Of a stretch of 64,000 nt of DNA, positions 30,998-43,921 are shown in pieces (within the stretch, counting starts at the first letter, position 1; each line of letters starts with the position of its first letter). The DNA lies in assembly GCA_017640665.1 (NCBI GenBank), contig JAEPQE010000002.1, positions 186,001 to 250,000 on the forward strand, given 5' to 3'. The notes under the pieces were generated by a model. It was not told where the DNA came from. It ran no database searches and saw nothing but the letters and a program-made list of their open reading frames with translations. This DNA comes from Balneolaceae bacterium (GTDB taxonomy: Bacteria; Bacteroidota; Rhodothermia; Balneolales; Balneolaceae). The translations under genes were made by a program, and so were the position numbers.

Positions 30998-32308
30998 CTA
31001 CAACCCATACCTCTTTGCCATAGTTGATGACTTGGATGGATTCCAGACATCTTCATAAGAACGTTTGAAGAAGAATTCCTGGTAGTAGGCTGTAGTTCGT
31101 ACAAGCCGAAGATAAATTCCGGTATAGATGGTCATTAAAGGAATAAATTTAATCAGCTTCATCTCCTCTTTTTTCCGTTCTGTAAATAGTAAAATACTTC
31201 CCATCTGAACATAGCTCATTACCACATACAGTGTAAAATTCATCGGGATGATAAACTGCAACGAGGAGCTGTAATTGAAGATGATATCAATCATATACAC
31301 AATCCACATCAAATCGAGGATTACGTTATAGAACACATTTTCAAACAATGCGAAAAAGTTCGACCAGTTGAAGTTGGCATGAGGCATATACACATCCCGG
31401 TGTTTGCGTACTCTGAATCGGATAATGGATTTGTCCCATCTTAACCGCTGTTTGGTTAGTACTTTAAATTTCGACGGAGCATTGGTTAAACAAATAGCTT
31501 CCGGTTCAAAATGAATTTTATATCCGCACTTTCTGATTTTTACCGTGATATCTCCATCCAGTCCCGGGCCAATATCCCAACCTCCGATCTTGTCTAAAAT
31601 TTCAGGGCGGAATGCACCAAAAGCTCCGGATACGATCTTATAAATTCCAAGATAAGAAGTGATTATCCGACCCACAGAAACAGTTTTTAAATATTCAATC
31701 GCCTGAAGACTCGCACAGAGACTGTCATTATAATTCCTCACTTTCACGTTCCCTCCTACAGCACCAATCTTATCATCGTAGTAAAAAGGAATAACTACTT
31801 TTTCAATAGCGTCTCTGTCGAAGGAACAGTCGGCATCTAAGTGAACAATGAATTTCCCCTTTGCATAACGGAGTGCAAGATTAGCCGCAGAAGCCTTCCC
31901 TCCTCGTATCTCGTTCCTTATGAACATATCGATTAAGCCGAGTCGTTGCAGGTTTTTGCCTATGATCGGTGTTTCATCATCTGAGCCGTCATCCACAATG
32001 ATGAGTTCAAAATTCTGATAGGTCTGCTCGGCTAGTGATTTAGTAAGCTTAAAAAGATGAGCACCTTCGTTTTTCCCCGGAATAATGATGGAAACCAAAG
32101 GATTTTCCAGAAAGAAAGCTCTTCGTGCTTGCTCGAATTGTTCATTGTCGCTTTTCCGGGTTAGCCATTTAAAAAAAACGATGATGTAATCGATGATGAT
32201 GTATCGGGTAAACTCAAATAAACAAAAGTACCAGAACACTCTCAGGAACTTCTTGAACCCAACAGCAAACCAGTATTCAACATATTCGGGTGCCAGCTGC
32301 TCAAACAT
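30998..32308 (-). CDS. processive GT2 membrane polysaccharide synthase
   Basis: 436 residues. N-terminal hydrophobic segment (about 20-50), a cytosolic GT-A domain with VSIIIPGKNEG, VDDGSDDETP, DxD in HLDADCSF and the processivity motif KQRLRWDKS, then C-terminal membrane helices (about 310-400). This is the architecture of NodC, hyaluronan, PNAG and alginate (Alg8) synthases, which polymerise and translocate a glycan. Last gene of a unit with the dehydrogenase and TackOD1-like genes (4-bp gap). Polymer identity is unknown; a hexuronic or amino-uronic acid is plausible from the dehydrogenase. Confidence 0.88.
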   Translation of the reverse strand: MFEQLAPEYVEYWFAVGFKKFLRVFWYFCLFEFTRYIIIDYIIVFFKWLTRKSDNEQFEQARRAFFLENPLVSIIIPGKNEGAHLFKLTKSLAEQTYQNFELIIVDDGSDDETPIIGKNLQRLGLIDMFIRNEIRGGKASAANLALRYAKGKFIVHLDADCSFDRDAIEKVVIPFYYDDKIGAVGGNVKVRNYNDSLCASLQAIEYLKTVSVGRIITSYLGIYKIVSGAFGAFRPEILDKIGGWDIGPGLDGDITVKIRKCGYKIHFEPEAICLTNAPSKFKVLTKQRLRWDKSIIRFRVRKHRDVYMPHANFNWSNFFALFENVFYNVILDLMWIVYMIDIIFNYSSSLQFIIPMNFTLYVVMSYVQMGSILLFTERKKEEMKLIKFIPLMTIYTGIYLRLVRTTAYYQEFFFKRSYEDVWNPSKSSTMAKRYGL

Positions 32309-32312
32309 CTTC

Positions 32313-33692
32313 CTATCCGTTAGTCAGTTTAGAAATCAGTACTTCTACTGGATTATCAAATGTTCCGATTCCATCAGAAATCAGTTTTGAGATATTGTTT
32401 TGAATCAGCTTTCCGATTTTTTCAATACTCTCGGGAGTCTGATCATAGACTAAGAATCGATACCAAATGGTGCTGGGACTCGAAAGTACATCTGCCTTTC
32501 CCAGATAATTGGTTATAATTGCGCACATCTCTTTTTGAATGATTTCCTGTTGATCTACATGAAAACCGGACATGATCTCTGGATGAATTCGAACCGAACC
32601 TTCCCAGCTTAATTTCTCAGACAACCCTTCTCTTGAGATTTCCTGCTTTTTAAACAGTTCCAGAATTTGTTCGGAAACGGCATTAACTTTCCTGGGTTGT
32701 TCAGTTGCCCCCGTCTGTATATGAATTCCGTATTTAGCTGCTTGTTCTCCCAGTGGAGTTAATTCGTAAGAAGCTATTTCAATGTTACCGAGTTGTGATA
32801 GTTCATTATCCTTTCCACAGTCGATACACAACGCCTTGACCTCCGCTTGTTGGAACTGATGACTACAATCGTTGCAGGTGTGCATACTGGAAGGCTTATC
32901 ATAATCGATCCCAATATGACGCAACTCCTTATCACACTTCGGACATTCGAGCGCATCTTCTTTTTTATAATCCTGTTCGGGCGCAATGTGAGCACATAAA
33001 AAATGATGGATTAAATCTTCCGTTTTTAAATCTGCTGATCCACATTTTGGACAACACTCTCTGTAATTCAGATACCCTCCGGAGCATGTTCGGCAGGTAT
33101 GTGTTTTATCTTTCGTTTGTTTTACGGTGTACCCTTCTTCATACGATTTATTCAATATTTCGATAACCCGGGGTGCTTCTTCATCTTTTAATACAACGCT
33201 CAGAAATGGATACGCATATCCTATTTTTGAAGTTCTCGATCTGGCTGGCTCAAAAATCTGCTCTCTTGAATATGAAAACTGAAGAGCCGATTGTATTAAG
33301 GACTGAGTGTAATCCAGTTGATGAATTTCGTAGTTCATCTCCCTTAACTTTGCTTTGATGGATTTTAGCTGTTGCAGAATTACAGGCTTGGTATCGTCCG
33401 AGAAAACTCCATCAAACTGATACTTAATGGTATGGAGCTTTGATACCGTTGAACTGATGAAGACCGGTACAAGAGCATGTAACCGGTTTCTGTTTGATCT
33501 GATTATTCTGATAAGTTCTTTAGCTTCCTGACTGGTATTTGTCTGAACCAGAATTCCATCAATATTCTGAAGTGAATCAACATCCAGCTCCCCAACTCTG
33601 TTAATAACCAGCACATTCAGGCTTTCGTTATCAAAAGTAAGAGTTTTTGATGAGGAGTTTGGATGTTGTATGAGTTCAAACATGATATTCAC
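32313..33692 (-). CDS. degenerate receiver plus zinc-ribbon (TackOD1-like) protein of the polysaccharide locus
   Basis: 459 residues, soluble. The N-terminal 120 residues look like a receiver fold with strands (LNVLVINRVG, GILVQTN, LVPVFIS) but without a clear phosphoacceptor. The middle (about 165-300) is cysteine-rich: CRTC, CPKC, FLCAH, CPKC, CNDC and CIDC pairs, as in the thaumarchaeal output domain TackOD1. The C-terminal 150 residues are unassigned. It sits between the dehydrogenase and the synthase, with 4- and 22-bp gaps, where synthase-dependent systems often encode a regulatory partner. Family call is tentative; function unknown. Confidence 0.65.
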   Translation of the reverse strand: MNIMFELIQHPNSSSKTLTFDNESLNVLVINRVGELDVDSLQNIDGILVQTNTSQEAKELIRIIRSNRNRLHALVPVFISSTVSKLHTIKYQFDGVFSDDTKPVILQQLKSIKAKLREMNYEIHQLDYTQSLIQSALQFSYSREQIFEPARSRTSKIGYAYPFLSVVLKDEEAPRVIEILNKSYEEGYTVKQTKDKTHTCRTCSGGYLNYRECCPKCGSADLKTEDLIHHFLCAHIAPEQDYKKEDALECPKCDKELRHIGIDYDKPSSMHTCNDCSHQFQQAEVKALCIDCGKDNELSQLGNIEIASYELTPLGEQAAKYGIHIQTGATEQPRKVNAVSEQILELFKKQEISREGLSEKLSWEGSVRIHPEIMSGFHVDQQEIIQKEMCAIITNYLGKADVLSSPSTIWYRFLVYDQTPESIEKIGKLIQNNISKLISDGIGTFDNPVEVLISKLTNG

Positions 33693-33714: not shown

Positions 33715-35082
33715 TTAGAGGCTAAGGTAGGTTCCGTGAGAAACTTTGTCTTTAATGATGCCACGTACATCGAAGAAAATGGTATCTGAGTAAGAAATAG
33801 AATTGAAGTATGCTTCATCAAGCTCGTCGTACTCATCATGAGCAACTGCCATGATTACTACATCAAACTTACCTTCCTGCTCCTTTTTGCAATCGATTCC
33901 ATACTCATTATATACTTCTTGGCCATCAGCATGTGGATCTTCAACCTTGCTTTTGATACCAAATAACTCAAGTTTTTTTACTACATCAGCTACTTTAGAA
34001 TTTCGGATATCGCTAACGTTCTCTTTAAACGTGATTCCTTTTACCAGAACCGTACATGCTTTAGGATCTTTTCCAAGCTCGGTTAATTCTCTCTGTATTT
34101 TGAATGCGATATTATAAGGCATTCCATCATTGATGAATCTTGAACTTGAAATGACTCTTGGATCAACTTTTACTTGCTTTGCTTTATACGCCAGGTAATA
34201 AGGATCCACTCCAATACAGTGCCCCCCTACTAATCCGGGGAAGAATTTCAGGAAGTTCCATTTTGTACCAGCTGCTTCAAGTACGGCATTAGTATCAATA
34301 TCAAGTTTGTCGAAGATCAAAGAAAGTTCATTCATAAGAGCGATATTAACGTCACGTTGTGTATTCTCTATGATCTTAGAAGCTTCAGCAACTTTCATAC
34401 TGGCTGCTTTATGAATTCCCGCAGTAATAATGCTCTCGTACACCTTCGCTATTTGCTCAAGTGATTCTTCATCGCTTCCGGAAACCACTTTAGTGATATT
34501 TGTTACCGTGTGAACTTTATCACCCGGATTAATTCGTTCTGGTGAATACCCTACTTTGAAGTCTTCATTAAATGTTAATCCTGAAATTCTTTCCAAAATC
34601 GGAACACAAACTTCTTCCGTACATCCGGGATATACCGTAGATTCGAAAACTACATAATCTCCTTTCTTCAATACTTCGGCTACACTTGCAGTCGCTTTTT
34701 TCAAGGGAGTTAAGTTTGGCTCTCTGCGTTCATCAATGGGAGTTGGAACTGCAACTACATAAAATTCGGCTTCTGCAATTTGATTTATTTTAGAAGTGAA
34801 CCTGATGTTTTTGTTTTCAAATGCTTCACTGGATAATTCTTTGGAAGGATCAATTCCTTCTTTCATCATGTCCACGCGTTCGTCGTTTATATCAAAGCCG
34901 ATAACATCGAAGTTGTTTGCGAATTCTAAGGCGATTGGTAAGCCTACATATCCAAGGCCTACCATTGCCATTTTTGCTTCTCCAAGAGCCAATCTTGAGT
35001 ACATGCTGTTGTCATGTTTGATCAACCTTAAAGCAGGTGCTGAGGATTGAATTACATCTAGTTTTTTTGCTGTGTTGTTCAT
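33715..35082 (-). CDS. nucleotide-sugar dehydrogenase (UDP-HexNAc 6-dehydrogenase type)
   Basis: 455 residues of the UDP-glucose/GDP-mannose dehydrogenase superfamily, closest in pattern to TviB/WbpA. NAD motif VGLGYVGLPIALEF, catalytic Cys region GLVGGHCIGVDPYYLAYKA and the C-terminal UDP-binding domain (VADVVKKLELFG) are present. It oxidises C6 of a nucleotide sugar twice to make a uronic acid. First gene of its unit, preceded by a LytTR-type site and a good -7 box. It probably feeds the GT2 synthase two genes downstream. Confidence 0.9.
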   Translation of the reverse strand: MNNTAKKLDVIQSSAPALRLIKHDNSMYSRLALGEAKMAMVGLGYVGLPIALEFANNFDVIGFDINDERVDMMKEGIDPSKELSSEAFENKNIRFTSKINQIAEAEFYVVAVPTPIDERREPNLTPLKKATASVAEVLKKGDYVVFESTVYPGCTEEVCVPILERISGLTFNEDFKVGYSPERINPGDKVHTVTNITKVVSGSDEESLEQIAKVYESIITAGIHKAASMKVAEASKIIENTQRDVNIALMNELSLIFDKLDIDTNAVLEAAGTKWNFLKFFPGLVGGHCIGVDPYYLAYKAKQVKVDPRVISSSRFINDGMPYNIAFKIQRELTELGKDPKACTVLVKGITFKENVSDIRNSKVADVVKKLELFGIKSKVEDPHADGQEVYNEYGIDCKKEQEGKFDVVIMAVAHDEYDELDEAYFNSISYSDTIFFDVRGIIKDKVSHGTYLSL

Positions 35083-35119: not shown

Positions 35120-35127
35120 CAAACTTA
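35120..35127 (-). promoter_or_regulatory. -7 box TAAGTTTG of the dehydrogenase-synthase unit
   Basis: Exact TAnnTTTG on the minus strand. Its upstream edge is 30 bp from the nearer LytTR half-site at 35157, the same spacing as before the TolC gene. Confidence 0.65.
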
Positions 35128-35156: not shown

Positions 35157-35185
35157 TCGATGAACGGAAAGAATCTGTCGGTGAA
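35157..35185 (-). promoter_or_regulatory. LytTR-type regulator site 1 (before nucleotide-sugar dehydrogenase)
   Basis: Minus-strand half-sites TTCACCGA (35178-35185) and TTCATCGA (35157-35164), 21 bp apart. The nearer one extends to TCCGTTCAT, a full match to the published LytTR half-site [TA][AC][CA]GTTN[AG][TG]. Confidence 0.75.
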
Positions 35186-35220
35186 TGGTTTAATTGGAGA
35201 GATTCTTTGTTTTAGAATAG

Positions 35221-35272: not shown

Positions 35273-37237
35273 TTATTTTCTAATAAAATCTGACGTACTT
35301 ATAGATTCCGGATCTTCAGACGAAATCATAAAAATGGCATCATTAAAATCTTTATCTCCCTGCGGTAAAGCGATGTCCTCGAAAGCCAATACAATACTTG
35401 TGCAGCCTTCATCATAGAAGACAATACTTTGCTGGCGCTCACTTACATTGAATTCAGGGATCGTATATTGAGTGTAAATTCCATCAGTTATTTTGTTTCC
35501 ATTCCATCCGTTAGATATAACGAAGAATCCAATTACTGTTCCTTCTTCGAAATCTCCAAGAAGCTTCATGGTGTTACCCTGAATCAGATCACCACCTGAG
35601 TATTTAGCCGAAGCGTTCGGGAAAATTACGACTTTATTTAAGTCACTTATTTGTGATGGAGGGTTGTCTTTGTGGTAGTAATAATATCCCAAAGTATTTC
35701 GGTACCCTGCTCCCTCACTGATAAACGTCACATAAACCTTGTCATCTTTCAGAAGCTCGATTTCCCGGTTTGGATTGTCAAAGTATTCTGGATTCCTAAC
35801 GGTCACATTGCTTCGTTCAGGAAGTACGTTACGGAACAGGTTTGGGAGCAACTCACTACACACTTCAACATTTTTGGGCTCCATACCGTGAGGCACACCC
35901 TTAGAATCGAAACCGTATAAGGTCTGATGTTCACCTAATTTACCTTTTCGTAGAATTTTGAGCCCTTCTCCTCCTTTTGCTACAAATATCCACTCCCCAT
36001 CGGTAGTCATATAATTTGCAGATCCCGGTACTTCATTCATATCCCATTCAAATACAGACTGTAATTCTCCCGGATTCTCCGGCATATTAAACACAGATAT
36101 TCCGTCAGCACCGTTAGCGGTGTAGAGATAATCGAAATCGCTGGTTACTCCATTAATATTTCCTTTAGTTAAAATATTATCAGGAGTACGGAATACTTCT
36201 TCCTCAGTATAAATATCGAATCCTTTCAGACCTTCCAATCCCATAGTCACAAATACAGTTTCCGGGTGACGTTGAGCAAAATGGAGAGTGGATTTTCCCC
36301 GATAATTTAGTTCCACATTCTGATGAACTGCGGTACCAATTGGGATCGATCTTGATAAGGACTCGCTTCCTACAGGTTTTACTTTTAGTTCTGCACTGTC
36401 TCCTGTAACCAACGTTACAACTGACGATGCAAATGGAATACTTCCATTCGTAGCTACATATTTTGCGTCAGAATATTCTTCGGAATTCTTAAAACTGAGG
36501 TCATTTACGTTCAGAGTAAAGGTTCCACCATGAGTTTTTCCAGCAGTAATGTATAAATCGTTTCCTGATCTTACTACCCCATTCGCTGAAGCACTTACCC
36601 CACCTTCAGTAAATTTTGATAACGAAATATCTTTTACCTGATTGGAAATCAATCCATCTCTAAGACTAATCTGACGAACTACAGCCCCTTTATTCTTATG
36701 TGATAAAGCCAGCCAGATTTTCCGATAAAACTCATCTCCCTGGTAATCCGTTGTGATAGCGTTTACATCTGCATTATCAAAAAGAGCCTGACTAACAAGT
36801 TTTGGATAGGCTCTGTTCGTAAGATCAAAGACTTCAAGTCCGCCCAGGTGGATATCTCCCTGTTTATTGTAAGACACATAAGCTTTATCATCAACTACCT
36901 GAACATGAGTAGCACTTAGTTTAGACCCCTTAAATACCGGAGATTCTACCTCTGCTACGAAATACCAGTTATGATCTAACACTTCACTATTCTCAATAGT
37001 TGATGTTTGACTTACGGATTGAGCTGTTTTTTCCTTTGCTTCGGGATCGAAGATTTCAGCTTTTCCTGAATTGTTTACGACCAAAGGTTTATTGATGTAA
37101 TTAATCCTTGAGTTCAGAATTTCCTGATTATGCTCAAGAACTATTTTGTCTTCTGTGGATTCTTCAGAATCAAATGTCGGGCTACAAGCAGTAATCAAAC
37201 CTGATCCAACCAACAGAAATATTAGTTTTGTTTTCAT
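35273..37237 (-). CDS. DUF4114 lipoprotein with beta-propeller-like repeats
   Basis: 654 residues. Lipoprotein signal (hydrophobic 4-15, then TACS with Cys 18). About 80-440 holds repeated strand blocks typical of LVIVD/beta-propeller repeats (THVQVVDDKAYVSYN, GVTSDFDYLYTANGADGISVFNMP, GEWIFVAKGGEGLKIL). The C-terminus (about 535-645) is a DUF4114 domain (GTVIGFFVISNGWNG, LAFEDIALPQGDKDFNDAIF), often calcium-associated. A surface or periplasmic binding protein, perhaps retaining or shaping the exported polymer. Single-gene unit with its own LytTR site and terminator. Confidence 0.85.
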   Translation of the reverse strand: MKTKLIFLLVGSGLITACSPTFDSEESTEDKIVLEHNQEILNSRINYINKPLVVNNSGKAEIFDPEAKEKTAQSVSQTSTIENSEVLDHNWYFVAEVESPVFKGSKLSATHVQVVDDKAYVSYNKQGDIHLGGLEVFDLTNRAYPKLVSQALFDNADVNAITTDYQGDEFYRKIWLALSHKNKGAVVRQISLRDGLISNQVKDISLSKFTEGGVSASANGVVRSGNDLYITAGKTHGGTFTLNVNDLSFKNSEEYSDAKYVATNGSIPFASSVVTLVTGDSAELKVKPVGSESLSRSIPIGTAVHQNVELNYRGKSTLHFAQRHPETVFVTMGLEGLKGFDIYTEEEVFRTPDNILTKGNINGVTSDFDYLYTANGADGISVFNMPENPGELQSVFEWDMNEVPGSANYMTTDGEWIFVAKGGEGLKILRKGKLGEHQTLYGFDSKGVPHGMEPKNVEVCSELLPNLFRNVLPERSNVTVRNPEYFDNPNREIELLKDDKVYVTFISEGAGYRNTLGYYYYHKDNPPSQISDLNKVVIFPNASAKYSGGDLIQGNTMKLLGDFEEGTVIGFFVISNGWNGNKITDGIYTQYTIPEFNVSERQQSIVFYDEGCTSIVLAFEDIALPQGDKDFNDAIFMISSEDPESISTSDFIRK

Positions 37238-37405: not shown

Positions 37406-38443
37406 TCAGTAAAATCTTCCTATACTTACTTTTACCGACATCTTGTAGAACTGCTTCCATCCTTCCAAATCGTCTTCATTAAGCGGACTGATGTCTACTA
37501 AAATCGATCGCTCAGTGGGTTCATATTTCTTTTGAAATTCATCCGGAAGTTCATAAGTAGATACATAGTATTTTTTTATAACACCTTTTTGCTTAGTGCC
37601 ATCAGGGAATTCGATACTCACAATTCTTCCTATCTCTACCTTATCTGCTTCTTTTTGATTGAAATAAGCTTGAATACGTAGGTCCTGAGGTTGGTGTATA
37701 GTCATTACTTCATCCCCTTTATAACAAACTTCATTTTCTTTAACGCTAATTCTCCCTATTAACCCATCAGTTGGTGCTACATACAGCTTCCTTTGACTCC
37801 CTCCACCACCGGTCCAGGCAGAACTACTGTAGTCTTTTTTTAATTGTGAAAGTTGATCTATATGGCGAATCAGAAACCTGATTTCTTCTTTTACTAATTC
37901 AAGATCATCTTCAGTTGTCCCAATTGCCCGCTGTTGATCATCAAAGGAGTTTCTTGTTATGGCAGCAAGAGTAATCAGCTCTCTGATCTTTTCGAGTTCG
38001 AACCGTTGAGTTTCCAGTCTTTCTTCCAGAATTGAACGCTCTGTTCTCTTTTCATTTAATTGGCGGGTAAGCCCAAATATCTCCCGATTAACTCGTTCCC
38101 GGTTAGCAATTATATTTGCATAAGTAGCTCCGTCATTCTCAAAATACTGATTGGTGTATGAAAACAGAGTATCTCCTTTTTGAATACTTGCTCCTTCTTC
38201 AATTTGTAATCCATTCAGGCGAATATCATCAGTGAAATGAACTTCAAGTTTATCCATCGTAACCATTCCATCAATCTCAATAACCGCGATCCCTTTGTAC
38301 AACTTAAAGCTCCCGTATAATGCTATAATCACAAGCAGAAGGATAAATAATACCCGGTCTGTATTGAGCTTCTTTTTCTTTTTTTCAGGCTCTTTGAGGT
38401 GACGAATCGTTGCATTTCCTTGTTTAAAGCTGAATTGTTCCAT
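37406..38443 (-). CDS. HlyD-family membrane-fusion adaptor (Alg44-like candidate)
   Basis: 345 residues: a basic cytosolic start (EPEKKKKKLN), one membrane helix (about 30-48), the first half of a lipoyl domain, a long helical hairpin (about 105-215), then the second lipoyl half (LYVAPTDGLIGRISVKENE) and a beta-barrel (IVSIEFPDGTKQKG). Overlaps the TolC stop by 1 bp (TAATG). No ABC, MFS or RND pump is encoded here, so its partner may be the GT2 synthase, as the membrane-fusion part of Alg44 serves alginate export. That pairing is inference. Confidence 0.85.
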   Translation of the reverse strand: MEQFSFKQGNATIRHLKEPEKKKKKLNTDRVLFILLLVIIALYGSFKLYKGIAVIEIDGMVTMDKLEVHFTDDIRLNGLQIEEGASIQKGDTLFSYTNQYFENDGATYANIIANRERVNREIFGLTRQLNEKRTERSILEERLETQRFELEKIRELITLAAITRNSFDDQQRAIGTTEDDLELVKEEIRFLIRHIDQLSQLKKDYSSSAWTGGGGSQRKLYVAPTDGLIGRISVKENEVCYKGDEVMTIHQPQDLRIQAYFNQKEADKVEIGRIVSIEFPDGTKQKGVIKKYYVSTYELPDEFQKKYEPTERSILVDISPLNEDDLEGWKQFYKMSVKVSIGRFY

Positions 38444-39714
38444 TATTCAACCTCCTCAAAGGCACTCAACATCACTGGCGATGTATATTCCAGATAATGT
38501 GTTATTTCGTTATCGGGAAGCAGTACATTCATTTTCACAAGTATCTGCATCATTTGTTTACTAAGTGATATTTCTTCAATCTTCAGCGATAGTAAGTCGT
38601 CCTGAAGTAGTGATGCATCAGTAGCTGGTAATTCAGAATTCATACTCTGTTTATGAATCTGTTGAACTCTGAATTTTTCCTCTAAAATTTTAGTAGTAGA
38701 AATGATATTAGTTAGCTGTTTCTCTTTGTACACGTATTCCTGATACAGCACCAGTAATTCCTTTTTCAGATTAGCGACTAAATAGAGATGTTCTTCCTCA
38801 ATTTTCTTATTGGCCAGTTGGTATTTCTGCTTCTTTAAACCCGTAGTTCTGTGAACAGGTACTGAAATACTTACTCCTGCAGACACAAAATCTCTTCTGG
38901 ATTCCACAAAGCTAACCTGATGATTATAATTCAGAGAAGCTTTAATGATTACTTCTTCTGCCCAAAAAACTGGCTCCTTGTTAATTCTTTTTTGCGCATC
39001 TATACTCGATTCTAAAAACTGACTTTGATCGATATCATTAAGGATTTCAGCAATGGAAATAGAAGGAATTTCGATTTCTTCATCCCCCGAAAAAATCAAA
39101 GGATTTCCGAATATGGAGATGAAAGCCTGATTCGATTGAGAAATATTCTTCGTCTGGAAAGAAACTTCATTTCGCCGTTTTTCAAGTTCCAGCACCTCCT
39201 GATTGGTGAAATAACCTTCTTTTCTGAGCGAACTGAACAACCTCTGTTTTGTTTTGAGTAATTCTTCCCTTGATAGATACACATCTAACAGTAGGTTGTC
39301 GTAGAGATATGCTGTTAATGAATACTGAGCATAATATGCTCTGGCCTTTGATTCTTTTTCAGAGTTGATCGCTTCTAATCTGGCTATTAGATCTAGTTGA
39401 TCCGCTTTCGATTGATTTTGATACCAACCTCCTTTCAACAAGTTCCAGCTCAAACCTGCCTTATAAAAAGTCTGAGCATTGTTCTCTGTTAAATCAGCTT
39501 CTATAAATCCTTCCCCAAATCGATGCTGTGCTGATGCATTAAAGGATAAGCCATAATCATTTCGATAGATTTCGGACTCAACGTTATATTCATTGACTAT
39601 TAACTGACTTTTTTCTGAAGCTCCGAAGTCGAGTATTTCTCTTATTAATTCTTGTCCTGATATTTCAGTCTGAATCAGAGCAGAGAATAAAATGGTTATA
39701 ATAATCCGGTTCAT
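38443..39714 (-). CDS. TolC-family outer-membrane channel
   Basis: 423 residues with a signal peptide (1-20). Long alternating helices and short strands as in outer-membrane efflux proteins; YKAGLSWNLLKGG and SAGVSISVPVHR are strand segments with the usual pattern. First gene of a two-gene unit with the HlyD-like adaptor. Preceded by LytTR site 3 and an exact -7 box. It would be the exit duct of the export system. Confidence 0.88.
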   Translation of the reverse strand: MNRIIITILFSALIQTEISGQELIREILDFGASEKSQLIVNEYNVESEIYRNDYGLSFNASAQHRFGEGFIEADLTENNAQTFYKAGLSWNLLKGGWYQNQSKADQLDLIARLEAINSEKESKARAYYAQYSLTAYLYDNLLLDVYLSREELLKTKQRLFSSLRKEGYFTNQEVLELEKRRNEVSFQTKNISQSNQAFISIFGNPLIFSGDEEIEIPSISIAEILNDIDQSQFLESSIDAQKRINKEPVFWAEEVIIKASLNYNHQVSFVESRRDFVSAGVSISVPVHRTTGLKKQKYQLANKKIEEEHLYLVANLKKELLVLYQEYVYKEKQLTNIISTTKILEEKFRVQQIHKQSMNSELPATDASLLQDDLLSLKIEEISLSKQMMQILVKMNVLLPDNEITHYLEYTSPVMLSAFEEVE

Positions 39715-39730
39715 GATGTATGTTTTTATT

Positions 39731-39738
39731 CAAACATA
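39731..39738 (-). promoter_or_regulatory. -7 box TATGTTTG of the TolC-HlyD unit
   Basis: Exact TAnnTTTG on the minus strand, 30 bp from the nearer LytTR half-site, 17 bp before the start codon. Confidence 0.65.
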
Positions 39739-39767: not shown

Positions 39768-39796
39768 TCGATGAAATGCAGAATGCTGTCGGTGAA
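39768..39796 (-). promoter_or_regulatory. LytTR-type regulator site 3 (before TolC)
   Basis: Minus-strand half-sites TTCACCGA (39789-39796) and TTCATCGA (39768-39775), 21 bp apart. Located 23 bp after the stop of the LytTR regulator gene itself. Confidence 0.75.
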
Positions 39797-39819
39797 AGGA
39801 ATTTCAAGACCGATTAACC

Positions 39820-40503
39820 TTAGAGCATATTCAGTTTACTCAGTAAGGTCTCTTTGTTCCCGCGACTAATTGGGATGATCTCCTCAGCAATCAGGATACT
39901 GTTATCCTCAATATCTACAATCTTGTTTAAGTTGATGATATAAGAACGATGGACTTTCAAAAAAACAGACCCGGGTAGTTTCTCTTCTATCTTCTTTAAA
40001 GTGATATGAACCGTATGCTTTTTGTCTTCTGTTTTAATTTGTACATAATCGCCCTTAGCCTCGATAACCTGAATATCATCAAAGTTTAGCTTAACCAGCC
40101 TGGAGTTGATATTTACAAAGATCGAATCTGCCTTAACCTCTTCAGCAGAGTTTGATTTTTTAGTTTTCAGTTTATCCAAAGCCTTAAGAAAACGAGGCAT
40201 TGTTATGGGCTTAACTAAATAGTCAATCACATTGTATTCAAAAGCCTCAAGAGCGAAACTGGTATCTGTCGTAGTCATAATTACATCAGGTAGCTCAGAA
40301 ACCGATTTTACAAACTCGGCTCCTGTTAATTCGGGCATATGGATGTCCAAAAAAATAAAATCCAGATCAGTATTTTGAATAAAAGACAATGCGTCAGCAG
40401 GGTTTTCAAACTCACTTAGTACCTTAACAGAGCCCGTTTTTTCACAGAGTTTTTTAAGCGCCATTCTTGCGGTTTGTTCATCATCAATGATTATGCAATT
40501 CAT
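39820..40503 (-). CDS. LytTR-family response regulator
   Basis: 227 residues. Receiver domain 1-120 (IIDDEQTA, FLDIHMPELTG with Asp about 53, LVKPI) and a LytTR DNA-binding domain about 128-227 (IQVIEAKGDYVQIKTED, FLKVHRSYIINLNKI). LytTR proteins bind pairs of 9-bp direct repeats one or two helical turns apart, which is what the three nearby intergenic sites show. Last gene of the phosphorelay run; overlaps the HPt gene by 4 bp. Confidence 0.95.
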   Translation of the reverse strand: MNCIIIDDEQTARMALKKLCEKTGSVKVLSEFENPADALSFIQNTDLDFIFLDIHMPELTGAEFVKSVSELPDVIMTTTDTSFALEAFEYNVIDYLVKPITMPRFLKALDKLKTKKSNSAEEVKADSIFVNINSRLVKLNFDDIQVIEAKGDYVQIKTEDKKHTVHITLKKIEEKLPGSVFLKVHRSYIINLNKIVDIEDNSILIAEEIIPISRGNKETLLSKLNML

Positions 40504-41177
40504 ATCATATTCTCCAGCTCAGTTGCTGATTTTTTCAATTCTGAAGTTAGATATCCAACTTCACTTTCAAATTTAGTCCAACTATCAAAAGATTTAGTTT
40601 TAGCTGTATATTCAAGGTTTTCAGACAATTCATCAATAGATAAAATTCCAAATGTTCGGATTTTAGTCCTTAAAGCATGAATCGTTTCAGCTATTTTTTT
40701 AAAATCTTGATTCTTAACAGCGTCAAGTAAAACATCAATTTGGTCAGGGACTTCTTTAAGAAACACCTTTACCATTTCTCTCTTAAAATCTTCATCTCCA
40801 TCCGAAAGTTCATCCAGATAACTAAGATCAAGTGAAGAATCGTTTTCTTTTACCGATGTTCCTTTAATCATGCTTTCAAGATCATCTTCTTTGATAGGTT
40901 TCAGATAAAAGTGATCGGTATCAATTTTCAATTTTGATTGTAAAGATGGAGATAATTTGCTTCCGCTCACATAGTATACTTCTATAAACCCTGAGTAATC
41001 TGGTTCTTTTCCAGGTACGTAACAGTCTCTTATCAATATGGAATCGCCTGATATGTTCAGTGAATCCAGTTCATCCAGCGATTCCATAATAGTAACACTA
41101 GAGAGGCCCATTTTTTTTATTAGCCTTTTAAAGGCTAGCCGGTCAAATTCACTATCGTCTATATAAATAATCTCCAT
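40500..41177 (-). CDS. receiver-like plus HPt phosphotransfer protein
   Basis: About 225 residues from ATG 41177 (an earlier ATG at 41195 would overlap the upstream gene). The N-terminal 105 residues are a diverged receiver (IIYIDDSEFDR, ILIRDCYVPG, FYLKPIKEDDL) that still has an Asp in the usual place. The C-terminal half is an HPt four-helix domain with the phosphorylatable His in AETIHALRTKIRTFG. It would pass phosphate between the CheY-like receiver and the LytTR regulator. The 1-bp gap and 4-bp overlap with its neighbours show tight coupling. Confidence 0.85.
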   Translation of the reverse strand: MEIIYIDDSEFDRLAFKRLIKKMGLSSVTIMESLDELDSLNISGDSILIRDCYVPGKEPDYSGFIEVYYVSGSKLSPSLQSKLKIDTDHFYLKPIKEDDLESMIKGTSVKENDSSLDLSYLDELSDGDEDFKREMVKVFLKEVPDQIDVLLDAVKNQDFKKIAETIHALRTKIRTFGILSIDELSENLEYTAKTKSFDSWTKFESEVGYLTSELKKSATELENMI

Positions 41178-41178
41178 A

Positions 41179-41601
41179 CTAGGTTGCCAGCTCACTGATA
41201 TCCCAATAATGTTTCATGGTAGAAAGCATCTCCAGAAAGTCGCTGTATCTAACCGGCTTAACCATGTACCCTGCTGCTTGCCTTTCAAACCCTTTTAATT
41301 TATCAGAAGGATGTTTTGAGGTAGTCATTATAACAACCGGAATCATTTTAAGAACTTTGTCTTCCTTTACTTTTTCTAAAAACTCGAACCCATCCATAAT
41401 CGGCATATTCAAATCAAGTAATATAAGACCAGGTAAATTATCCTGATTTTCCATTAGCCAGGCTAGTCCTTCCTTTCCGTTTATTTTCGAAACCAAAGTA
41501 TTTTCAAACCCAAGCTTTTGGAAGGCCCTTTCTACTTTTTTTATTTCCAGCGCACTGTCTTCAAGAAGTAAAACTGATCTCTGATTTTTCATATGTTTCA
41601 T
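41179..41601 (-). CDS. CheY/Rcp1-like single-domain response regulator
   Basis: 140 residues, receiver only: LLLEDSALE, phosphoacceptor Asp in LILLDLNMPIMDG (about 61), Thr in VIMTTSKHP and Lys in YMVKPV. The EF-like insertion after beta-3 is as in Rcp1 proteins that serve PAS/GAF kinases. Its start overlaps the 3' end of the kinase gene by about 40 bp. Probably the first phosphate acceptor of the relay. Confidence 0.92.
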   Translation of the reverse strand: MKHMKNQRSVLLLEDSALEIKKVERAFQKLGFENTLVSKINGKEGLAWLMENQDNLPGLILLDLNMPIMDGFEFLEKVKEDKVLKMIPVVIMTTSKHPSDKLKGFERQAAGYMVKPVRYSDFLEMLSTMKHYWDISELAT

Positions 41602-43921
41602 TTTTTGGAAGGGTAAAGAAAAAAGTCACTCCTTTTTCTGTATTATTTTTGAACCAAATTTTCTGTCCATTATTCTCAATAATTTTTTTCACAATAGATA
41701 AGCCAATACCGGTAGAATCTTCATTTTTGTTATTGGCTTTTGCAAACAGATCAAACACATTCTCTCCAATTTCTTCAGAAATACCCTGCCCATTGTCTGA
41801 AATGCTGAAATGCCATTTTCCTTTTTCCGGGTGACAATTAATTTCTATCAATCCCGACTCGCTATCCATAAATCTAATCGCATTTGAAATCAGGTTTTGG
41901 AAAACCTGAGTTAATTGAATCCTGTTAAATAGAACAGTAGGTAACTTTTCCTGAGTCTTTATACTAATGTGTTCCGGAACATCCAGATTATTAATGCAGG
42001 TTTGTACCAATTCATTACAGTCTATTTTTTCATCCAGTTCCTGTTGACCAGAGGTAGTTGAGTAGGTGAGAATACCTTCAATCAGTTCATCCATTTTCTC
42101 GACATTATCGATAATCAGATTAAGCGTCTTTTCGCCTTCTTCATCAAGTTTATCACCATAATCTTCAATCACCCATTCACTTAACGAACTTATGGCTCGG
42201 AGTGGAGCTTTTAAATCATGAGAAACAACATGAGCGAATTCCTGAAGCTGATCGTTAACAACTTTAAGTTCGTTCAAGAGCCTTTCTCTCTTTTCTTCCT
42301 CCTTTTTCTTTTCTGTGATATCTCTTGCTATCGTTTGAATCGCTTTCTTGTTGTTATAGATAACAGGACTGGAGGTCACCTCAATTATTTTACGATTGTT
42401 TTTAAATGTAATAATCTCAAATTCAATGGATGGAACCTTCTTACCCTCTTGTAGTAATCTTAACCGATTCTCAAATTCAGGTTTCAATTCTCGGGTAGAC
42501 AAATCTATCAGATCTTTCCCTAGTATTTGATCTAATGTCTCAGCTTCATATAATTCTAATCCAGCAGGATTGAGATAAACGATTCTTCCCTTTTCTGTAA
42601 TCTGGATAGCTTCGGGCTGATTATCTACCAACTTATGCCAACGTTCTTCACTATTTCGTAGTAATCTTTCAGCTTCTTCTTTTTGTTTATTTACAATTGC
42701 ATTACTAAGCTGAGTTGAAACCATATTAGCAATAGTTGTTAAAGTCTCTAGGTGTTCCTGGGTATAAAAATTCTTTTCCGGATGTTCGGAATCAATCACC
42801 CCTATTACTTTATTGCCTTCAATAATTGGAACGCATAATTCGGAATATCTCACATTATCATCTACAATATATTCCGGATCATTAGAAGTATCATCTACTA
42901 TTACAGGAGCTCCGATTTTAGCAACACGGCCTACAACCCCTTTTCCTATTGGAATGGAAATAGGATCCAATATTTCGTCCTCCTCTGCTTTTTTGGGTCC
43001 ATAAGCAGCAAGCTGATGCAATAATTGGGTTTCTTCATCCAGGATATACACTATACAATCCTCAAAACCGAGTTTTTCAATGGTATTCTTAGCAATTTCC
43101 CATGCAACTTCTTCAAGAGTAGTTTTACCTAAAAGGTTAATTGCTAAATCATTAACGGCTTTTAGTAACCGCTCCGATTTTTTTTTCTCCGTGATATCTC
43201 TCACAAACGAACTGAAGAAATAGACTCCATCAATTTTATTTGGGATGATGGTTAATTCGACAGGAAATTCAATCCCGGTAGCATTAATGGCGGTAATTTC
43301 AATACGTTGGTTTAATACCGGACCTTCTCCTGTATTTAAAAAGTGCTTCATCCCTCGTTCATGAGCTTCCCGGTATTTTTGTGGGATGATGGTTTCGGAA
43401 AGACGTTTGCCTAATGCCCGTTGCTTACTCCATCCAAAAGTAATCTCTGCTTGTTTATTCCATTCTGTTATGATCCCTTTTTCATTAATTACTATAACTG
43501 CGTCTAGCGCAGAATCAATAACAGACTGAAGTTTGGTTTCGCTTTCTGATAATAGATGTTCTACAGAGCGTAATTTAGTAACTGGTCTTGCTACTCCAAA
43601 AAAGCCTTTCGGATTGCCCCCTTCATCTTTATATAAATTCGTAGTCTGGCCTACCCATACTTCATTACCAGAGCTCGTTTTAATAGGAAATTCAAAATAA
43701 TCTGATAACCTCTGGTTACTAAGAACTTCTTTAAAGTGATTGCGTGTGTCTTTTTGTTTGCTTTCACTTACAAAATCAGTGAAATGTCTTCCTATGATCT
43801 GATCAGATTCTAATCCCAATAAGCGCTCCATAAAGTGATTTACAAACGTAAATTCACCTTTAAGAGAACAAAAGAACATGATGTCTCCGGAGATATTTGC
43901 TATGTGCTCAAAAGATTTCAA
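41561..43921 (-). CDS. cytosolic PAS-PAS-GAF-PAS sensor histidine kinase
   Basis: 786 residues from TTG 43921; no in-frame ATG lies between an upstream stop and this start. Domains: PAS (about 1-115), PAS (125-245), GAF (255-410), PAS (420-540), coiled coil, HisKA with phosphoacceptor His in VVSHDLKAPLRAI (about 570), and ATPase with N box FQNLISNAIRF, G1 DNGQGI and TGIGLSIVKKII. No membrane helix, so it reads internal cues such as redox, light or small ligands. No attached receiver: that function is in the next gene. Confidence 0.94.
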   Translation of the reverse strand: MKSFEHIANISGDIMFFCSLKGEFTFVNHFMERLLGLESDQIIGRHFTDFVSESKQKDTRNHFKEVLSNQRLSDYFEFPIKTSSGNEVWVGQTTNLYKDEGGNPKGFFGVARPVTKLRSVEHLLSESETKLQSVIDSALDAVIVINEKGIITEWNKQAEITFGWSKQRALGKRLSETIIPQKYREAHERGMKHFLNTGEGPVLNQRIEITAINATGIEFPVELTIIPNKIDGVYFFSSFVRDITEKKKSERLLKAVNDLAINLLGKTTLEEVAWEIAKNTIEKLGFEDCIVYILDEETQLLHQLAAYGPKKAEEDEILDPISIPIGKGVVGRVAKIGAPVIVDDTSNDPEYIVDDNVRYSELCVPIIEGNKVIGVIDSEHPEKNFYTQEHLETLTTIANMVSTQLSNAIVNKQKEEAERLLRNSEERWHKLVDNQPEAIQITEKGRIVYLNPAGLELYEAETLDQILGKDLIDLSTRELKPEFENRLRLLQEGKKVPSIEFEIITFKNNRKIIEVTSSPVIYNNKKAIQTIARDITEKKKEEEKRERLLNELKVVNDQLQEFAHVVSHDLKAPLRAISSLSEWVIEDYGDKLDEEGEKTLNLIIDNVEKMDELIEGILTYSTTSGQQELDEKIDCNELVQTCINNLDVPEHISIKTQEKLPTVLFNRIQLTQVFQNLISNAIRFMDSESGLIEINCHPEKGKWHFSISDNGQGISEEIGENVFDLFAKANNKNEDSTGIGLSIVKKIIENNGQKIWFKNNTEKGVTFFFTLPKNETYEKSEISFTS

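What the first reader, a model, noticed from the sequence alone, without database searches (positions are those of the whole stretch)
39820..43921. A complete four-step phosphorelay split over four overlapping genes
Reading along the minus strand: a cytosolic PAS-PAS-GAF-PAS kinase without a receiver, an Rcp1-like receiver, a receiver-like plus HPt protein, and a LytTR regulator, with overlaps or gaps of a few bases. That is His-Asp-His-Asp in gene order, followed at once by the predicted targets. The HPt protein also carries a diverged receiver that could be a second input or a phosphate sink.
Basis: partly seen in the sequence, partly recalled or inferred. Interest (0 to 1): 0.72.

Follow-up and report, generated by a model that had tools for sequence, protein, structure and literature searches.

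The report
Four-protein phosphorelay switching polysaccharide genes
A bacterium of the family Balneolaceae carries four neighbouring genes that look like a complete bucket-brigade signalling chain, and the chain's last protein very probably switches on the sugar-polymer making and export genes right next to it through three matching DNA sites.

Summary
On the minus strand, 39820-43921 encodes a cytosolic PAS-PAS-GAF-PAS HisKA kinase without receiver, an Rcp1-like single receiver, a receiver+HPt protein and a LytTR regulator, almost or actually overlapping. The predicted phospho-Asp and HPt-His residues are conserved in 4 of 4 orthologous loci. Correction: the receiver of the HPt protein is divergent in sequence and short around helix 3, but keeps all its catalytic positions. 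The genes are conserved together (4 of 4), yet rare (4 of 92 family genomes).

New: a direct repeat, CATTCAYCGA with 21-bp period, lies upstream of all three downstream transcription units (tolC-like/hlyD; DUF4114; UGD-TackOD1-GT2), exactly 29 bp before a TAnnTTTG-like -7 box. The 3.8-Mb genome has one other hit (3 mismatches); 12 of 12 related TackOD1 loci without the relay lack it at up to 3 mismatches. It fits LytTR-site architecture. So this is most likely a dedicated Spo0/SdrG-PhyT-type split relay that transcriptionally activates one processive-GT2 polysaccharide locus, in a genome without detectable GGDEF proteins. Phosphotransfer, wiring and LytTR binding remain untested. New variant of a known kind.

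The parts
41561..43921 (-). Cytosolic sensor histidine kinase, PAS-PAS-GAF-PAS-HisKA-HATPase_c, no receiver; phospho-His H568 (codon 42218-42220)
   Evidence: Pfam; alignment; hydropathy; 66-79% identity in 2 congeners; the G236 ortholog lacks the GAF domain
41179..41592 (-). Rcp1-like single-domain receiver; phospho-Asp D60 (codon 41413-41415)
   Evidence: Pfam; E11 D12 D60 T90 K112 invariant in 4 of 4; 61-82% identity. 'Rcp1-like' is a recalled label
40500..41177 (-). Receiver + HPt protein; receiver D51 (41025-41027), HPt phospho-His H167 (40677-40679)
   Evidence: Pfam; HALRTKIRTFGI block invariant in the genus; H167, D51, S71, K93 in 4 of 4; AF2 model pLDDT 78, receiver fold without helix 3 plus helical bundle; HPt 3myf TMt 0.76, CheY-like TMt about 0.63
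39820..40503 (-). LytTR response regulator, REC-LytTR; phospho-Asp D53 (codon 40345-40347)
   Evidence: Pfam; 56-87% identity, D7 D8 D53 T77 K98 invariant in 4 of 4
39768..39798 (-). Predicted LytTR operator, direct repeat period 21 (tolC-like/hlyD unit)
39731..39738 (-). Predicted -7 box TATGTTTG, 29 bp downstream of the operator
38443..39714 (-). TolC-like outer membrane protein (no Pfam or PDB match; named from its position beside hlyD and recalled TolC character; weakly similar to the large proteins at the same place in relatives)
37406..38443 (-). HlyD-family membrane fusion protein
   Evidence: Pfam HlyD_3; TM segment
37304..37334 (-). Predicted LytTR operator upstream of the DUF4114 gene
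35273..37237 (-). Predicted secreted or surface protein with DUF4114
35157..35187 (-). Predicted LytTR operator upstream of UGD-TackOD1-GT2
35120..35127 (-). Predicted -7 box TAAGTTTG, 29 bp downstream of the operator
33715..35082 (-). UDP-glucose/GDP-mannose dehydrogenase family
32313..33692 (-). TackOD1 protein: N-terminal non-receiver domain, TackOD1 domain, GGDEF-like C-terminus
30998..32308 (-). Membrane GT2 with QRLRW motif (processive synthase-like; PDB matches include hyaluronan, chondroitin and heparosan synthases)

Best explanation
A dedicated four-step phosphorelay split over four proteins. The soluble PAS/GAF kinase autophosphorylates on H568. The phosphoryl group passes to the stand-alone Rcp1-like receiver (D60), then to H167 of the HPt domain, then to D53 of the LytTR regulator. 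Phospho-LytTR binds 21-bp-period direct repeats 29 bp upstream of the -7 boxes of three promoters and activates the adjacent polysaccharide synthesis and export genes. The receiver fused to the HPt still has a complete active site; it most likely acts as a second phospho-acceptor (extra input, back-flow or sink) or a docking domain. Shown: domains, conserved residues, co-conservation, DNA sites and their spacing. Inferred: order of transfer, direction (activation), the LytTR-site pairing, and the polysaccharide product.
For: Domains. Catalytic residues: RR, REC-HPt and LytTR in 4 of 4 orthologs, kinase in 3 of 3 congeners. Gene order in 4 of 4 genomes with the REC-HPt ortholog, of 92 family genomes searched. 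Own genome has only one other HPt hit. Motif: 3 hits in the window against 0.02 expected. Whole genomes at up to 3 mismatches: 3 of 4 hits in G000, 3 of 5 in G001 and 3 of 4 in G002 lie in this locus, and 1 of 4 in G236; reversed-pattern control 1, 1, 0 and 0. Offset 29 to the -7 box: 48 of 54 match points, next best offset 24, 0 of 2000 shuffles. Motif absent at up to 3 mismatches from 12 of 12 TackOD1 loci without the relay. LytTR sites described as two repeats of 9-11 nt with 11-13 nt spacers: PMC4847170, passages only.
Against: No phosphotransfer or binding data exist. The motif was derived from these same promoters, so only its rarity elsewhere, its conservation and the -7 spacing are semi-independent tests. 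In G236 the basic residue three after the HPt His is a Leu and the Pfam Hpt score (21.3) is under its cut-off; its UGD site needs 4 mismatches. The DUF4114 -7 box is weak (4 of 6 in the window). The fused receiver makes the wiring ambiguous. The genome has 22 LytTR domains, so another LytTR could bind the sites. Three loci with a window-like TackOD1 N-terminus (G115, G341, G430) show no relay nearby; G430 is cut by a contig end.
Confidence: 0.74

Rival explanations
1. The main line is kinase, then the receiver fused to the HPt (in cis), then HPt, then LytTR, as in an unfused hybrid kinase. The stand-alone Rcp1-like receiver is a phosphate sink or a separate output.
For: The fused receiver keeps all active-site positions in 4 of 4. 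In Flavobacterium loci the same kinase-receiver-HPt order is one polypeptide.
Against: The stand-alone receiver is much better conserved (61-82% against 34-57% identity) and lies directly after the kinase. The fused receiver has only 20-21 residues between its Asp and Ser, against 30 in the stand-alone receiver, and its model lacks helix 3.
Confidence: 0.2
2. No relay: the kinase phosphorylates the LytTR regulator directly, and the other two proteins are modulators (phosphatase or sink).
For: Two-step kinase-LytTR pairs are the usual arrangement (family knowledge, recalled).
Against: The kinase is HisKA/HATPase, not the LytS-type His_kinase family usual for LytTR partners (usual pairing recalled). 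The HPt block is the best-conserved stretch of an otherwise fast-evolving protein within the genus.
Confidence: 0.1
3. The direct repeats belong to another regulator, and the relay's output lies elsewhere.
For: 22 LytTR domains in the genome; no binding data.
Against: In each of the three genus genomes three sites sit at the three promoters directly downstream of this LytTR gene, and elsewhere there are only 1, 2 and 1 hits, all with 3 mismatches. Loci without the relay lack them.
Confidence: 0.1

Closest known systems
Pak-SdrG-PhyT-PhyR relay, Sphingomonas (PMC5898713, abstract seen)
   Same: Kinase, single-domain receiver, separate His phosphotransferase, output regulator: four proteins, four steps
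   Different: PhyT is membrane-bound and PhyR acts through the sigma factor EcfG; here a soluble receiver-HPt protein and a LytTR DNA-binding output, all four genes contiguous with their targets
Spo0 relay of Bacillus (KinA-Spo0F-Spo0B-Spo0A; recalled)
   Same: Relay split over four separate proteins with a stand-alone first receiver
   Different: Spo0B is not a canonical HPt domain; genes scattered; output Spo0A is not LytTR (all recalled)
RcaE-RcaF-RcaC (PMC8256508, passages seen)
   Same: A sensor kinase passes phosphate through a small receiver (RcaF) to a DNA-binding regulator acting at L-box promoter sites
   Different: RcaC carries HPt, two receivers and the DNA-binding domain in one protein (recalled); light-sensing kinase; different output domain
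E. coli YpdA/YpdB (PMC4847170, passages seen)
   Same: LytTR output; direct repeat GGCATTTCAT with an 11-nt spacer in the promoter shown gives the same 21-bp period and a similar half-site
   Different: Plain two-step LytS/LytTR system without HPt
Flavobacterium HK-REC-HPt / single receiver / YaiO / HEAT / GT2 clusters
   Same: Receiver-HPt relay beside a membrane GT2
   Different: Relay fused into a hybrid kinase, terminal receiver has no DNA-binding domain, no TackOD1; a different gene set

Membership tests
Multistep His-Asp-His-Asp phosphorelay | Kinase with intact phospho-His and ATPase domain | tested here: met
Multistep His-Asp-His-Asp phosphorelay | Intermediate receiver with complete active site | tested here: met
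   stand-alone; fused
Multistep His-Asp-His-Asp phosphorelay | HPt domain with conserved His in a helical bundle | tested here: met
   Pfam score under cut-off in the G236 ortholog
Multistep His-Asp-His-Asp phosphorelay | Terminal regulator with phospho-Asp and output domain | tested here: met
Multistep His-Asp-His-Asp phosphorelay | Phosphoryl group actually moves through all four sites | not testable with these tools
   needs biochemistry
LytTR response regulators | REC + LytTR domains | tested here: met
LytTR response regulators | Target site of two 9-11 nt repeats with 11-13 nt spacer | tested here: met
   10-nt repeats, 11-nt spacer at three promoters (definition); binding not shown
LytS/LytTR two-component pair | LytS-type (His_kinase family) membrane partner kinase | tested here: not met
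   HisKA kinase, no TM segment
REC-TackOD1 response regulators | Receiver domain fused to TackOD1 | tested here: not met
   The window's TackOD1 protein has a different N-terminal domain, related to a small stand-alone protein of relatives and without detectable match to the receiver alignment tried

The most novel reading that the evidence does not exclude
In this family one polysaccharide machine (GT2-HlyD-TolC-TackOD1) is run by two alternative control designs. In most loci TackOD1 itself carries a receiver, a response regulator sitting beside the synthase. In this lineage TackOD1 has no receiver, and a complete four-protein phosphorelay was added to control the same genes by transcription through LytTR sites, in genomes with no detectable GGDEF diguanylate cyclases, where TackOD1's GGDEF-like tail may be a relic or a ligand sensor.
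Probability: 0.4. Interest if true: 0.68.

Novelty: new variant of a known kind. Interest (0 to 1): 0.52.

Why it matters
It is a compact, self-contained system in which every component of a four-step relay, and apparently all its DNA targets, lie within 13 kb. That makes relay wiring (which receiver feeds the HPt, and what the second receiver does) directly testable. It also gives concrete predicted LytTR operators and promoters in a little-studied lineage (Balneolaceae), and an example of matrix-polysaccharide control without detectable c-di-GMP synthases.

Tried and rejected
1) That this LytTR receiver was borrowed from the REC-TackOD1 proteins of relatives: rejected. It is 32-36% identical to those receivers but 38-44% identical to several other LytTR receivers of the same genome.

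2) That the N-terminal domain of the window's TackOD1 protein is a pseudo-receiver: no support. hhalign against the RR alignment gave probability 0.1%. It is homologous to the small stand-alone protein of relatives (98%, E 1.6e-13).

3) A structure of the TackOD1 protein: two-sequence model, mean pLDDT 38, unusable and not searched.

4) That the relay is widespread: rejected, 4 of 92 family genomes. Wider phylum hits (213 of 394 genomes) are mostly generic HPt domains or hybrid kinases.

5) A strict one-to-one link between relay and receiver-less TackOD1: rejected. Relay in 4 of 7 receiver-less copies and 0 of 9 receiver-bearing ones; G115, G341 and the contig-edge G430 are receiver-less without a relay found.

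6) Motif upstream of the kinase gene (autoregulation): the best match has 7 to 9 mismatches in 4 of 4.

7) Literature: searches 'TackOD1' (1 paper), phosphorelay/exopolysaccharide/Bacteroidetes/HPt/LytTR (6 papers, judged by title and abstract only) and Balneolaceae + histidine kinase (0 papers) showed no report of this system; I make no wider claim.

Full report
What is there. The window is a stretch of a 3.8-Mb, 9-contig genome. A congener, G002, coincides with record CP051242.1, titled Balneolaceae bacterium ih13. Four minus-strand genes (39820-43921) encode, in transcription order, a PAS-PAS-GAF-PAS HisKA/HATPase kinase without receiver and without hydrophobic segments; a 137-residue Rcp1-like receiver; a receiver+HPt protein; and a REC-LytTR regulator. 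Comparison with congeners refines the boundaries: kinase/RR overlap of 32 bp, RR/REC-HPt gap of 1 bp, REC-HPt/LytTR overlap of 4 bp. The finding's coordinates and domain calls are correct.

Residues. RR D60, HPt H167 and LytTR D53, with the surrounding catalytic residues, are conserved in 4 of 4 loci: three in the genus and one, G236, in another genus of the family. For the kinase the residue check (H568 and its neighbours) is on the three genus members; in G236 the HisKA and HATPase domains are found by Pfam. The REC-HPt is the fastest-evolving relay protein (57, 38 and 34% identity), yet within the genus the HALRTKIRTFGI block around the His is invariant. Its Pfam score is indeed poor (13.3 bits), but the acidic pair, D51, S71 and K93 are kept in 4 of 4. 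Only 20-21 residues separate Asp and Ser, against 30 in the stand-alone receiver (numbering), and the AlphaFold2 model (5 sequences, mean pLDDT 78, about 60-70 in this stretch) shows no helix 3. The HPt part is a helical bundle most like solved HPt domains (3myf, TMt 0.76), and the receiver part is CheY-like (TMt about 0.63); no match reached E 0.001.

Co-conservation. Searching the 92 family genomes offered with the REC-HPt profile at E 1e-20 gave 4 genomes. In 4 of 4 the kinase, RR, REC-HPt and LytTR are adjacent in the same order and are followed by tolC-like, hlyD, UGD, TackOD1 and GT2 genes; the DUF4114 gene is present in 3 of 4. So the genes travel together, but the system is rare.

Targets. 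The downstream genes form a likely synthase-dependent polysaccharide locus: membrane GT2 with QRLRW, UDP-sugar dehydrogenase, HlyD, a TolC-like protein, and TackOD1. In their upstream regions I found a direct repeat CATTCAYCGA-N11-CATTCAYCGA. In the window there are 3 hits at up to 3 mismatches, at 35157, 37304 and 39768, against 0.02 expected by shuffling. In whole genomes at up to 3 mismatches: G000 4 hits, 3 of them here; G001 5 hits, 3 here; G002 4 hits, 3 here; G236 4 hits, 1 here (its UGD site has 4 mismatches); the reversed-pattern control gives 1, 1, 0 and 0. The repeat was read off these promoters, so the number of local hits is not itself a test. The tests are its rarity elsewhere, its single orientation, and the spacing: exactly 29 bp after the repeat stands a TAnnTTTG-like box, the Flavobacterium sigma-A -7 consensus (PMC9723704, passages). 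Summed over 9 congener promoters, offset 29 scores 48 of 54, the next offset 24, and 0 of 2000 shuffles reach it; with the window's three promoters alone, 16 of 18 against 8 and 0 of 2000. The DUF4114 box is the weak one (4 of 6). LytTR regulators are described as binding two 9-11-nt repeats with 11-13-nt spacers, and YpdB binds a GGCATTTCAT direct repeat (PMC4847170, passages); the sites here fit that architecture.

Controls from relatives. TackOD1 was found in 13 of 92 family genomes (14 copies). With two more from other families of the phylum (seven weaker matches there, below the family cut-off, were not examined), 16 copies were examined with neighbours. In 9 copies TackOD1 begins with a receiver (in one, G012, Asn stands at the phospho-Asp position); in 7, including the window, it begins with another domain. 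The relay is beside 4 of these 7 and 0 of the 9. The 12 loci without the relay have no repeat at up to 3 mismatches (two have a 4-mismatch match). Some receiver-type loci have other signalling genes nearby (a 142-aa receiver in L104, a kinase in L103). The three receiver-less copies without a relay (G115, G341, and G430, the last on an 8.6-kb contig) prevent a strict swap rule.

Mechanism. Best reading: kinase H568 to RR D60 to HPt H167 to LytTR D53, then activation of the three promoters. The choice of the stand-alone receiver as the first acceptor rests on its position, its higher conservation and its normal length; it is inference. The fused receiver is either a second entry or exit point for phosphate, or a docking part. 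Sensing by a soluble PAS/GAF array points to an internal or diffusible cue; none is identified. GGDEF domains were not detected in the three genus genomes, while 8 of 14 control genomes gave hits, so conventional c-di-GMP control of the synthase is unlikely there.

Comparison with the known. The logic is that of Spo0 (recalled), Pak-SdrG-PhyT-PhyR (PMC5898713, abstract) and RcaE-RcaF-RcaC (PMC8256508, passages). What differs is a contiguous, target-linked cassette, a two-domain receiver-HPt carrier, and a LytTR output reached through an HPt instead of a LytS-type kinase. I rate it a new variant of a known kind.

Noticed in passing
window 32313-33692 (C-terminus, from about residue 340); G236:C116:68508-68912: The C-terminal part of the TackOD1 proteins is a degenerate GGDEF-like domain: a profile of 12 TackOD1 proteins hits GGDEF structures (best 6zxm, E 5.9e-7), in genomes where no GGDEF protein is found over the cut-off.
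   Followed up: partly
L099, L100, L101, L103, L104, L105 (between hlyD and TackOD1 genes): A 106-119 aa stand-alone protein in receiver-type TackOD1 loci is homologous (hhalign 98%) to the N-terminal domain fused onto the window's TackOD1 protein. Function unknown; no detectable match to receivers.
   Followed up: partly
L036-L038, L146-L152, L155, L159: Flavobacteriia have a conserved cluster of hybrid kinase (HK-REC-HPt), a 121-aa lone receiver, HEAT-like protein and membrane GT2, often with YaiO: 9 of 20 loci that I picked from the better non-family hits (lone-HPt hits mostly left out), plus three named Flavobacteriaceae loci. A lone receiver may act directly on the synthase.
   Followed up: partly
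L080 (G367:C22): A split version of that cluster: 1224-aa kinase, separate 235-aa REC-HPt protein, 121-aa receiver, HEAT-like protein, GT2, YaiO.
   Followed up: no
L075, L076, L077: Three genomes from two other families share a different cluster: a two-domain REC-HPt protein with two further receivers, a kinase and a conserved block of roughly nine genes. Function not examined.
   Followed up: no
L001 (G000:C1:298828-299058): The only other HPt in the genome is a lone 114-aa protein with no kinase in the 3.2-kb stretch seen; it could cross-talk with this relay.
   Followed up: no
window 35273-37237; L099, L103, L106, L174: Relatives of the DUF4114 protein (matches mostly to its first 430 residues) recur beside TackOD1/GT2 genes in several other genomes, suggesting a secreted partner of the polysaccharide.
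   Followed up: no
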